In this document: positions 57,473-60,221 of the stretch, in pieces
Numbering within the stretch: position 1 is the stretch's first letter
Layout: each line of letters starts with the position of its first letter
DNA from: Flavobacterium panacis
GTDB lineage: Bacteria > Bacteroidota > Bacteroidia > Flavobacteriales > Flavobacteriaceae
DNA length: 64,000 bases
Reading direction: 5' to 3'
Assembly: GCF_024649945.1 (NCBI RefSeq)
Contig: NZ_JANKMS010000008.1
Span: 62,001-126,000, forward strand
Translations under genes and position numbers: made by a program
Notes under the pieces: generated by a model
Database searches by the model: none
The model's input: only the letters and a program-made list of their open reading frames with translations
Told to the model about the DNA's origin: nothing

Positions 57473-58921
57473 ATGAGCAAATACACCGAAGACGATTTAA
57501 AAATCGAACTGGAAACTAAAGAATATGAGTACGGATTTTATACCAATATAGAATCTGAGACTTTTCCTATTGGCTTAAACGAAGAGATTGTAAGAGCTAT
57601 TTCGCTTAAAAAAGAAGAACCTGAATGGATGACTGAATGGCGTATCGAAGCTTTCCGCGCTTGGAAAGAAATGATCGAGCCAGAATGGGCAAACGTAAAT
57701 TACGAAAAACCAGACTTTCAGGCCATATCCTATTATTCAGCTCCAAAAACGGTAGATCCTAATAAAACTTTGGACGATGTAGATCCAGAATTATTAGAGA
57801 TGTACAAAAAGTTAGGAATCTCTGTAGACGAACAGAAAAAAATGAACAATATCGCTATGGATATCGTAGTCGATTCTGTTTCTGTTGCTACCACTTTCAA
57901 GAAAACTTTAGCAGAAAAAGGAATTATTTTCTGTCCAATTTCTGAAGCAATCAAAGAACATCCAGAATTAGTTAAAAAATATTTAGGTACTGTTGTTCCT
58001 CAGAAAGATAACTTTTATGCTGCGCTAAACTCAGCTGTTTTCTCTGACGGAAGTTTCTGTTATATTCCAAAAGGCGTAAAATGTCCGATGGAACTTTCAA
58101 CGTATTTCAGAATCAACCAAGCAGGAACTGGACAATTCGAAAGAACGCTGGTGATTGCTGATGAAGGAAGTTACGTTTCTTATCTTGAAGGATGTACAGC
58201 GCCAAGTCGTGACGAAAATCAATTACACGCTGCTGTAGTGGAACTAATCGCTTTGGATGATGCCGAAATTAAATATTCAACAGTTCAAAACTGGTTCCCT
58301 GGAAATAAAGAAGGAAAAGGTGGAGTTTACAACTTTGTAACGAAAAGAGGTTTATGCGAAACTAACGCTAAAATTTCTTGGACACAAGTTGAAACAGGTT
58401 CTGCTGTAACTTGGAAATATCCTTCTTGTGTATTGAAAGGAGATAATTCAGTAGGAGAATTTTATTCTATTGCTGTAACAAATAATTTCCAACAAGCAGA
58501 TACTGGAACAAAAATGATCCATTTAGGTAAAAACACTAAATCGACTATTATTTCTAAAGGTATTTCAGCTGGAAAATCACAAAATAGCTACCGTGGTTTA
58601 GTGCAAATCTCTCCAAGAGCAGAGAATGCAAGAAACTTTTCGCAATGTGACTCGTTATTAATGGGTAACAATTGTGGTGCGCATACTTTCCCTTACATCG
58701 AAAGTAAAAATCCATCTGCAAAAATCGAGCACGAAGCAACTACAAGTAAAATTGGAGAAGACCAAGTATTTTATTGCAACCAAAGAGGTATTCCAACTGA
58801 AAAAGCGATTGCCTTAATTGTAAACGGTTTCAGTAAAGATGTCTTGAACAAACTTCCAATGGAATTTGCTGTTGAAGCTCAAAAATTATTAGAGATTTCT
58901 TTAGAAGGTTCTGTAGGATAA
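57473..58921 (+). CDS. sufB: Fe-S cluster assembly scaffold SufB
   Basis: SufB forms the SufBCD scaffold on which clusters are built. The 482-residue protein is full-length. Family phrases in order are [11 protein letters not shown] near residue 83, [20 protein letters not shown] near 158, [20 protein letters not shown] near 183, [25 protein letters not shown] near 239 and the C-terminal GMPTEKA-like [15 protein letters not shown] with EALIV-type wording. [19 protein letters not shown] near 394 contains a conserved Cys. It is followed not by sufC but by a toxin/antitoxin cassette. Confidence 0.97.
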
Positions 58922-58936
58922 TTTAAATCAAAAATT

Positions 58937-59134
58937 ATGGATCTAATCTTGAAAAATGTAAAGAAAAAAGATTTTCCGGTTTTAAAATCACTGGCAAAAT
59001 CTCTTGGTTTTGAAATTATTGAAGAGAAAGAAAAGCCATATAATCCTGAATTTGTAAAAGAGATTTTGGATGCCGAACAAAGTATAAAAGATGGTAAAGG
59101 AGTTAAAATAAAAACAGAAGATTTGTGGAAGTAA
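58937..59134 (+). CDS. Small antitoxin-like protein inside the suf operon
   Basis: The 65-residue protein MDLILKNVKKKDFPVLKSLA... has an N-terminal strand-helix followed by an acidic/basic tail (NPEFVKEILDAEQSIKDGKGVKIKTEDLW). This is the pattern of DUF2683-like antitoxins that precede YoeB/Txe toxins in Bacteroidota. It begins 15 bases after sufB. Its last 10 bases overlap the start of the toxin remnant. Since the toxin appears broken, the antitoxin may now have no partner, or may still act against similar toxins elsewhere. Confidence 0.8.
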   Translation: MDLILKNVKKKDFPVLKSLAKSLGFEIIEEKEKPYNPEFVKEILDAEQSIKDGKGVKIKTEDLWK

Positions 59135-59397
59135 TTTATTCTGAAAAAGCGCAAAAAGACAGAGAGTTTTGGAAAAAATCTGGAAATAAAGCGATCATGA
59201 ATAAAATTACTGCCTTGATTCAAGACATACAACTTCATCCATATTAAGGTATCGGAAAACCTGAACCTTTAAAATATGAATTATCTGGAAAATGGTCTAG
59301 AGGAATAAACCAAGAGCATCGGATAATTTACAGAGTAACTGAAGAAGATACAATCGAAATATTAGATATCCTTTCATTGAAAGGACATTATGAATAA
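59125..59397 (+). pseudogene. YoeB/Txe-type toxin with internal stop codon
   Basis: Starting at the GTG at 59125 (in the antitoxin stop region), the frame encodes VEVIYSEKAQKDREFWKKSG... then stops at TAA, 59245-59247 (codon 41). The same frame continues as GIGKPEPLKYELSGKWSRG, NQEHRIIYRVTEED, ending LKGHYE at 59397, 90 codons in all. These are the diagnostic YoeB phrases, including the GIGKPEPLK, WSRRI-like and EHRxxY stretches. Relatives have an acidic residue before GIGKPEPLK, so one G-to-T change (GAA to TAA) explains the stop. A sequencing error is the alternative. Confidence 0.88.
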
Positions 59398-59409: not shown

Positions 59410-60156
59410 ATGTTATCAATAAAAAACCTTCACGCCGCGATTGGTGATAAAGAAATCCTTAAGGGAATTAATATAGAAGTTAAAGCTGGAGAAGTTCACG
59501 CGATAATGGGACCAAACGGTTCTGGAAAAAGTACACTTTCTGCTGTTATTGCAGGAAACGAAAACTACGAAGTTACAGACGGAGAGGTAATTCTTGACGG
59601 AGAAGATCTTGCTGATTTAGCTCCAGAAGAAAGAGCACACAAAGGTGTTTTCCTTTCTTTTCAATATCCGGTAGAAATTCCTGGAGTTAGTGTAACTAAC
59701 TTTATGAAAACTGCTATCAACGAAACTCGTAAAGCAAACGGACAGGAAGAAATGCCTGCAAACGAAATGCTGAAAGTGATTCGTGAGAAATCTGAATTGT
59801 TAGAAATCGACCGTAAATTTTTATCTCGTTCTTTAAATGAAGGTTTTTCTGGAGGAGAGAAAAAAAGAAACGAGATTTTCCAAATGGCAATGTTAGAGCC
59901 AAAATTGGCTATTCTTGACGAAACCGATTCTGGCCTTGACATCGATGCTTTAAGAATTGTTGCAAATGGTGTAAACAAATTAAAAAGCGAGAAAAACGCA
60001 ATTATCGTAATTACACACTACCAACGTTTATTAGATTATATCGTTCCAGATTTCGTTCACGTTCTTTACAACGGAAGAATCGTAAAATCAGGCGGAAAAG
60101 AATTGGCTTACGAGCTTGAGGAAAAAGGATACGATTGGATTAAAGCAGAAAACTAG
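59410..60156 (+). CDS. sufC: Fe-S cluster assembly ATPase SufC
   Basis: SufC is the ABC-type ATPase of SufBCD. The 248-residue protein has Walker A GPNGSGKST at residues 35-43, the Q-loop in FLSFQYPVEIPG, the signature SGGEKKRNEI near 149, Walker B LAILDETDSGLDID near 166 (with the Asp after LDE typical of SufC) and the H-loop in VITHYQRLL near 199. It begins 12 bases after the toxin remnant. Confidence 0.97.
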   Translation: MLSIKNLHAAIGDKEILKGINIEVKAGEVHAIMGPNGSGKSTLSAVIAGNENYEVTDGEVILDGEDLADLAPEERAHKGVFLSFQYPVEIPGVSVTNFMKTAINETRKANGQEEMPANEMLKVIREKSELLEIDRKFLSRSLNEGFSGGEKKRNEIFQMAMLEPKLAILDETDSGLDIDALRIVANGVNKLKSEKNAIIVITHYQRLLDYIVPDFVHVLYNGRIVKSGGKELAYELEEKGYDWIKAEN

Positions 60157-60221
60157 TTTACAGTTACAGTTTACAGTTTATCAAACTCATAACTTATAAC
60201 TCATAACTTATAACTAAAGAA
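60157..60221 (+). repeat. Short direct repeats between sufC and sufD
   Basis: AGTTTACAG is repeated twice in 60157-60180 and is followed by repeats of AACTTATAACTCAT. AGTTTACAG also occurs in the 13-bp array at 23575-23583, and its complement CTGTAAACT lies at 27216, so the three places share one degenerate repeat family. Confidence 0.65.

What the first reader, a model, noticed from the sequence alone, without database searches (positions are those of the whole stretch)
58937..59397. Toxin/antitoxin cassette inside the suf operon, toxin dead by one stop codon
An antitoxin-like gene and a YoeB/Txe-type toxin lie between sufB and sufC, normally adjacent. The toxin keeps all its family phrases but has TAA at codon 41, best explained by one base change. 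Insertion into an essential operon would tie the cassette to Fe-S assembly, and loss of the toxin may have been selected. The antitoxin is intact.
Basis: partly seen in the sequence, partly recalled or inferred. Interest (0 to 1): 0.7.

Follow-up and report, generated by a model that had tools for sequence, protein, structure and literature searches.

The report
Dead toxin at shared suf berth
A small toxin-antitoxin gene pair sits between two iron-sulphur assembly genes in this Flavobacterium; relatives carry versions of it at the same spot, some with the toxin gene broken but the antitoxin kept, so the dead toxin here is one recent case of a recurrent process.

Summary
In detail: an intact DUF2683 antitoxin (58937-59134) overlaps a YoeB/Txe toxin frame (59125-59397) with TAA at 59245-59247, between sufB and sufC. 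It is not a one-off insertion. In Flavobacterium the sufB-sufC junction is a shared berth for small genes: of 147 junctions in 145 same-genus genomes, 78 are under 300 bp and 69 are longer, most with recognisable cargo. 74 of 75 named relatives of this antitoxin sit there. Toxin types alternate (22 changes on a sufBCD tree) while sufB, sufC and the antitoxin's first 27 codons stay similar, as expected of exchange by recombination, which was not formally tested. 12 of 74 named loci have an intact antitoxin with a broken or missing toxin, none the reverse. The window's stop is young: the frame keeps dN/dS 0.03-0.07; a sequencing error is not excluded. Three toxin-less copies keep constrained antitoxins (0.09-0.16), hinting at a use of their own. 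A functional link to Fe-S assembly is not supported. Ten full-text searches found no description.

The parts
57473..58921 (+). sufB, upstream flank of the berth
   Evidence: TIGR01980 624.9 bits, NF008773 902 bits
58937..59134 (+). DUF2683 antitoxin, 65 aa, intact
   Evidence: PF10884 E 1e-20 over residues 1-65; of the 30 strongest matches in 150 same-genus genomes 27 lie between sufB and sufC and one beside sufB on a contig that ends
58937..59017 (+). first 27 codons of the antitoxin: the segment that stays similar whichever toxin type follows
   Evidence: third-position identity 82.9% between toxin types, against 58.5% in the toxin; a similar start precedes a PIN toxin in G055 (78% over 27 residues)
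59125..59397 (+). YoeB/Txe toxin frame, interrupted; its first 10 bases overlap the antitoxin's end
   Evidence: TIGR02116/PF06769 in both halves; solved YoeB relatives, best 2a6q E 2e-18 with X at the stop
59245..59247 (+). in-frame TAA, codon 41, before the four columns that correspond to catalytic residues
   Evidence: sequence, translation; columns 47, 66, 88, 89 are the same in 59 of 59 full-length relatives; which residues are catalytic is recalled
59410..60156 (+). sufC, downstream flank of the berth
   Evidence: TIGR01978 374.1 bits
60222..61538 (+). sufD; the sufC-sufD junction is a second cargo site in the genus, without cargo here (65 bp)
   Evidence: TIGR01981 280.5 bits; sufC-sufD gap 458-589 bp in 37 of 139 places

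Best explanation
The sufB-sufC junction of Flavobacterium is a standing exchange site. Conserved sufB, sufC and the first two-fifths of the antitoxin gene give homology on either side, and small modules between them (DUF2683 antitoxin plus YoeB toxin, an FMN-reductase-like gene, intervening-protein-type genes and others) are gained, swapped and lost by homologous recombination between species (inferred from incongruence and block-wise identity, not from a recombination test). The pair in the window is one allele. Its toxin, if whole, would be a ribosome-dependent mRNA endonuclease (family knowledge; PMC11980606, passages seen), held off by the antitoxin encoded just before it. In this lineage an in-frame stop recently truncated the toxin to 40 residues without any catalytic residue, so the pair no longer works as an addiction module. 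The antitoxin is retained because losing it first would have been harmful, and possibly because it still protects against toxin-bearing alleles entering the same site. Shown: anatomy, site sharing, alternation of types, recurrent toxin loss, the asymmetry between toxin and antitoxin. Inferred: recombination as the carrier, mRNA cleavage, the protective use of the antitoxin.
For: 147 sufB-sufC junctions split into 78 under 300 bp and 69 longer, with at least six kinds of cargo. 74 of 75 named DUF2683 relatives are between sufB and sufC. On the sufBCD tree toxin types need 22 changes in 63 typed rows, not far from the shuffled mean of 26.5, and the window's sister F. hibisci L232 (94% identical sufBCD) carries, by eye, another toxin type with other lesions. 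In 25 typed loci of one clade, third-position identity between types is 72.6% (sufB end), 82.9% (antitoxin start), 58.5% (toxin), 78.2% (sufC start). Toxin broken or missing with intact antitoxin: 12 of 74 named loci plus the window; the reverse 0 of 74; in the search by toxin all 25 junctions with a toxin match have an intact antitoxin. Window toxin dN/dS 0.03-0.07 in nine comparisons.
Against: No formal recombination test was run. Types are more clustered on the tree than chance (2 of 200 shuffles as low), so part of the pattern is descent, and fast toxin evolution could mimic part of the identity drop. The tree is from the exchanged locus itself, not a species tree. The named loci were found with antitoxin patterns and a capped list, which is biased against antitoxin-less copies. 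The stop has not been confirmed by reads.
Confidence: 0.73

Rival explanations
1. The stop codon is a sequencing or assembly error, and the pair is an ordinary intact module like those of its relatives.
For: The frame outside the stop is under strong constraint (dN/dS 0.03-0.07 in nine comparisons) and column 41 is a sense codon in all 59 full-length relatives; the genome is a draft of 37 contigs.
Against: The site is not a homopolymer; column 60 also departs from 57 of 59 relatives; eight named relatives have other stops or frameshifts in the same gene, so a real loss is not unusual.
Confidence: 0.13
2. The antitoxin is kept for a use that needs no partner toxin: guarding the cell against toxin-bearing alleles that enter the berth or against other YoeB copies, or acting as a regulator within the suf operon. 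This can be true together with the best explanation.
For: Three toxin-less loci with the same-looking deletion end (L250, L263, L264) keep intact antitoxins with dN/dS 0.09, 0.12 and 0.16 at dS 1.27, 1.16 and 0.50. The window's genome holds two further YoeB-like matches (G000:C31 and C36, 63% and 50% identity). Antitoxins without toxins have been proposed as anti-addiction genes (PMC7354431, passages seen).
Against: A fourth locus of that look (L270) has a broken antitoxin, and L271 and L272 lost both. The three copies may have lost the toxin more recently than their antitoxins diverged. In the window the loss is too young to tell. The predicted antitoxin structure is of low confidence (mean pLDDT 71.8, pTM 0.35), so no DNA-binding fold can be claimed.
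Confidence: 0.3
3. The cassette is functionally tied to Fe-S assembly, its toxin or antitoxin answering to iron or oxidative stress.
For: Strict placement between sufB and sufC. In Riemerella (a related genus, recalled) suf genes and a four-helix-bundle gene whose locus tag falls between those of sufA and sufB are in one table of iron-upregulated genes (PMC5609570, passages seen).
Against: Unrelated cargo uses the same site and about half of the junctions have none; toxin, and sometimes antitoxin, are lost while suf stays.
Confidence: 0.08
4. A one-time insertion special to this strain.
For: 110 of 150 same-genus genomes have no match to the antitoxin, among them G049, whose SufC matches at 100%.
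Against: An antitoxin of this kind lies in the same junction in 28 of 147 same-genus places (one a chimera) and in 74 of 75 named loci.
Confidence: 0.01

Closest known systems
yefM-yoeB / axe-txe type II toxin-antitoxin modules (PMC11980606, passages seen)
   Same: Toxin frame of the YoeB/Txe family, antitoxin gene first and overlapping.
   Different: The antitoxin is DUF2683; no Phd/YefM match at E 0.1 and no credible relative in the PDB by sequence (best E 0.19). In the window the toxin is truncated before every catalytic residue.
Modules with a dead toxin and an intact antitoxin (parE pseudogene in Caulobacter, frameshifted yacB in Shigella; PMC7354431, passages seen)
   Same: The end state of the window's pair.
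   Different: Here the state recurs at one chromosomal site and can be compared with 59 full-length versions of the same locus.
Core-gene defence hotspots of Pseudomonas aeruginosa (PMC10250203, title and start of abstract seen in a search listing)
   Same: Conserved core genes flank a site with interchangeable accessory cargo.
   Different: The site lies inside an operon, with inserts mostly of 0.4-1 kb, by eye mostly in the direction of the operon, and an antitoxin start that stays while the toxin changes.
23S rRNA intervening-sequence / four-helix-bundle proteins (PF05635)
   Same: The same family supplies cargo of the sufC-sufD junction and of 23 of 147 sufB-sufC junctions.
   Different: Here the genes lie in a protein-coding operon, not in rRNA.

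Membership tests
YoeB/Txe toxin family (PF06769, TIGR02116) | profile match above the curated cut-off | tested here: met
   C-terminal half alone 56.2 bits (cut-off 27) and 57.6 bits (cut-off 51.8); N-terminal half 18.6 and 24 bits, below the cut-offs alone but in register
YoeB/Txe toxin family (PF06769, TIGR02116) | catalytic residues in the translated product (E46, R65, H83, Y84 of E. coli YoeB; recalled) | tested here: not met
   The four columns (47, 66, 88, 89) are kept in the frame but lie after the stop at codon 41; the gene is a broken member
DUF2683 (PF10884) | full-length profile match above the gathering score | tested here: met
   74.2 bits against 27, residues 1-65, profile 1-66 of 66; no NCBIfam match
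Working type II toxin-antitoxin module | both genes intact | tested here: not met
   antitoxin intact, toxin interrupted
Working type II toxin-antitoxin module | antitoxin binds and neutralises the toxin | not testable with these tools
   needs co-expression or a binding assay
Core-gene hotspot of accessory genes | conserved flanks with several unrelated cargoes and empty sites | tested here: met
   147 junctions: 69 of 300 bp or more, at least six cargo kinds, 52 under 79 bp
Core-gene hotspot of accessory genes | exchange by homologous recombination | tested here: inconclusive
   type changes on the tree and segment-wise identity agree with it; no formal breakpoint test

The most novel reading that the evidence does not exclude
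The start of the DUF2683 antitoxin gene is the fixed half of a modular locus: together with sufB it anchors recombination that brings in different toxins (three YoeB types, PIN; HEPN-type genes beside it), and the antitoxin is kept even without a toxin because it immunises the cell against toxin-bearing versions that arrive at the same site. An essential operon would thus carry a genus-wide, antitoxin-led exchange site.
Probability: 0.3. Interest if true: 0.68.

Novelty: new variant of a known kind. Interest (0 to 1): 0.47.

Why it matters
Toxin-antitoxin pairs are known best from mobile elements. Here one sits at a fixed place in an operon for Fe-S assembly across a genus, with dozens of natural versions: full-length, toxin broken in several ways, toxin gone, toxin replaced, and empty. 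That makes the order of decay, the swapping of toxins, and the question why an antitoxin outlives its toxin testable by comparison. The finding as first stated (one dead toxin) is ordinary; the setting is the interesting part.

Tried and rejected
Rejected: a strain-specific insertion. Rejected: long decay of the toxin frame (dN/dS 0.03-0.07; several dS values there are above 1 and so near saturation). Not taken as proof of decay: Gly at column 60, because full-length L268 has it too. Structure of the antitoxin: predicted from 39 rows, low confidence, so no fold search was made. PDB relatives of the antitoxin: none credible. A search of 199 genomes of the family (198 genera; it includes the window's genome and one more of its genus) for the antitoxin gave, beside the window's own, matches in 3 genomes at 27-43% identity, so the suf-located form looks confined to Flavobacterium in that sample. 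A repeat seen by eye in some short junctions: a 24-base form with up to 3 mismatches has no match in the window; an 18-base form has exact matches in 4 of 276 loci.

Literature: ten searches. Those that paired Flavobacterium or addiction toxins with suf or Fe-S terms (38, 63, 64) gave 0 papers; one search gave two on other subjects. Searches gave 2, 2, 4, 2 and 38 papers (12 of the 38 listed); except for three that I searched for passages they were judged by title and start of abstract only. DUF2683 occurs in one held paper (PMC4520260, one passage seen). Subscription papers are not held, so 'not described' means only not found here.

In the trees one suf-located row was dropped for gaps (75 rows with the window became 74), and 11 rows without a clear toxin type were not counted. 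The clade used was picked by eye from the tree. Of 37 large sufC-sufD junctions 20 were read.

Full report
What is there. Between sufB (57473-58921) and sufC (59410-60156) lie an intact 65-residue DUF2683 antitoxin (58937-59134) and, overlapping its end by ten bases, a YoeB/Txe toxin frame (59125-59397) with TAA at 59245-59247. Each half of the toxin, searched apart, matches the YoeB profiles in register, and of six solved relatives the best is YoeB itself (2a6q, E 2e-18). The four catalytic positions, named from memory of E. coli YoeB, fall on columns 47, 66, 88 and 89; all are the same in 59 of 59 full-length suf-located relatives and all lie after the stop. The predicted product is a 40-residue fragment. 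No ATG or GTG follows in frame, and the only TTG is seven codons from the end.

The site is shared. The window lies in a 5.96 Mb draft genome of 37 contigs. SufC and the end of SufB were located in the same 150 genomes (145 and 147 with a match) and paired into 147 junctions from 145 genomes, two genomes having two. The lengths fall into two groups: 78 under 300 bp (52 of them under 79) and 69 of 300 bp or more. All 147 were fetched and compared with nine representative proteins. They hold: antitoxin plus YoeB 16; the same with an FMN-reductase-like gene 7; with a PemK toxin 2; antitoxin with the FMN-reductase-like gene 1, with a HEPN gene 1, with a PIN toxin 1; FMN-reductase-like gene 18; intervening-protein type 23 in two forms (two of these in short junctions, as remnants); a YoeB remnant with a stop and no antitoxin 1 (G132); other 1; 24 short without recognised cargo; 52 near empty. 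Further genes in a junction beside the nine representatives are not counted. Family names are from Pfam on one representative each. The sufC-sufD junction is a second site: 37 of 139 are 458-589 bp and none lies between 120 and 457; 20 of the 37 were read and by eye all 20 hold intervening-protein-type genes, some broken. In the named carriers the sufA-sufB gap exceeds 300 bp in 7 of 74.

The antitoxin belongs to this site. In the whole-genome search 40 of 150 genomes had some match; of the 30 strongest places (E 1e-16 or better) 27 are between sufB and sufC, one is beside sufB on a contig that ends (G069), and two are elsewhere (G013:C4 and G106:C18). In the named collection, scanned with antitoxin patterns, 74 of 75 loci are between sufB and sufC; the exception is L260, a metagenome bin without suf genes near by. 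In 199 genomes of the family only 3 beside the window's own had a match, at 27-43% identity.

Toxins die, antitoxins stay. Of the 74 named suf-located loci, 59 have a full-length toxin and an intact antitoxin; 12 have an intact antitoxin with a broken or missing toxin (frameshifts in L207, L226, L228, L232, L269; stops in L230, L234, L259; deletion with only the last codons left in L250, L263, L264; no YoeB match and, by eye, a gene like G139's HEPN gene behind the antitoxin in L238); 3 have both broken (L270, L271, L272); none has a full-length toxin with a broken antitoxin. The search by toxin is free of the antitoxin bias: all 25 junctions with a toxin match in the 150 genomes have an intact antitoxin, and 22 of those toxins are full length. 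It used the C-terminal half of the toxin, so toxins that had lost that half would be missed. If a random hit fell in proportion to gene length, 13 of 13 one-sided losses in the toxin (12 named plus the window) would have probability 0.0008, or 0.0025 if the three with the same deletion end count once. This order is what addiction predicts and needs no further selection. On a sufBCD tree of 74 rows the broken label (16 rows, window included) needs 15 changes, at least 14 forced by well supported branches, and is not clustered (384 of 500 shuffles as low). These are not 15 separate mutations: L250, L263, L264 and L270 look like one deletion spread over the tree, so about 13 distinct lesions are seen.

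Types are swapped. Toxins fall into three types by their first residues (28 Q, 27 E, 9 M, 11 unclear among 75). On the tree, types need 22 changes in 63 rows (the least possible is 2); shuffled labels need 26.5 on average and 2 of 200 shuffles were as low. So type follows descent, but weakly. The window's sister by suf genes is F. hibisci L232, 94% identical over sufBCD, whose broken toxin resembles, by eye, the M type (the script left it unscored). In a group of 31 loci picked from the tree, 25 of them typed, third-codon-position identity for pairs of different type is 72.6% at the end of sufB, 82.9% in the first 27 antitoxin codons, 76.7% in the middle of the antitoxin, 58.5% in the toxin and 78.2% at the start of sufC; for pairs of the same type 73.5, 83.9, 78.7, 68.7 and 77.7%. 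The start of the antitoxin therefore stays with the locus while the toxin behind it changes. In G055 a similar first 27 residues (78% identical) are followed by a different tail and a PIN toxin. Recombination through sufB, the antitoxin start and sufC is the simplest reading; it was not tested formally, and the tree comes from the same locus.

The window's loss is young. Ten relatives were tried and nine gave a full comparison: the toxin frame, stop codon skipped, has dN/dS 0.03-0.07, like an active gene; the antitoxin has 0.05-0.14. One near-invariant position (column 60) differs, but a full-length relative shares that residue. So the stop is recent, a polymorphism, or an error; reads are needed.

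Does the antitoxin have its own use? L250, L263 and L264 share what looks like one deletion end, yet keep antitoxins with dN/dS 0.09-0.16 at dS 0.50-1.27. Against this, L270, of the same look, has a broken antitoxin. The window's genome has two more YoeB-like matches elsewhere, which such an antitoxin might or might not meet. Antitoxins without toxins have been proposed as anti-addiction genes, and single cases of dead toxin with live antitoxin are in print (PMC7354431, passages seen). The predicted structure is too weak to argue from.

Link to Fe-S assembly. Nothing here supports a functional tie: unrelated cargo uses the same site and about half of the junctions have none. Co-transcription is likely from the tight, same-direction spacing (inference). 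In Riemerella a four-helix-bundle gene whose locus tag falls between those of sufA and sufB stands in a table of iron-upregulated genes with suf genes (PMC5609570, passages seen), so guests of the operon may share its regulation.

Verdict. The dead toxin is real as sequence and ordinary as a state. The setting, a fixed, genus-wide exchange site inside an operon for Fe-S assembly with an antitoxin start that stays, is a new variant of a known kind and was not found in ten full-text searches of the held library.

Noticed in passing
sufC-sufD junction, 60157-60221 in the window; L178-L197: In 37 of 139 same-genus places this junction is 458-589 bp long; the 20 that were read hold, by eye, an intervening-protein (four-helix-bundle) type gene, sometimes broken.
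   Followed up: partly
L103-L109, L113, L115, L116 (short junctions): By eye, several short sufB-sufC junctions begin and end with inverted copies of a repeat like GTTTCAAGTTTC...GAAACTTGAAAC, perhaps a small dispersed element; a 24-base form was not found in the window.
   Followed up: partly
L033, L034 (G106, G138): A PemK-type toxin with a small gene before it stands ahead of the DUF2683-YoeB pair in the same junction: two modules in a row.
   Followed up: partly
L047 (G055), L035 (G139), L238: An antitoxin-like start is followed by a PIN toxin (G055), or an intact antitoxin by a HEPN-type gene (G139; L238 by eye): partner replacement at the same locus.
   Followed up: partly
L255: A contig titled as a Lentimicrobium bin carries a Flavobacterium-like suf operon with the pair and falls among Flavobacterium rows on the tree; probably mis-binned.
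   Followed up: no
G044 and G147: Two genomes show a second, more distant sufB-sufC locus with a short junction (41 and 31 bp); contamination or a real second operon.
   Followed up: no
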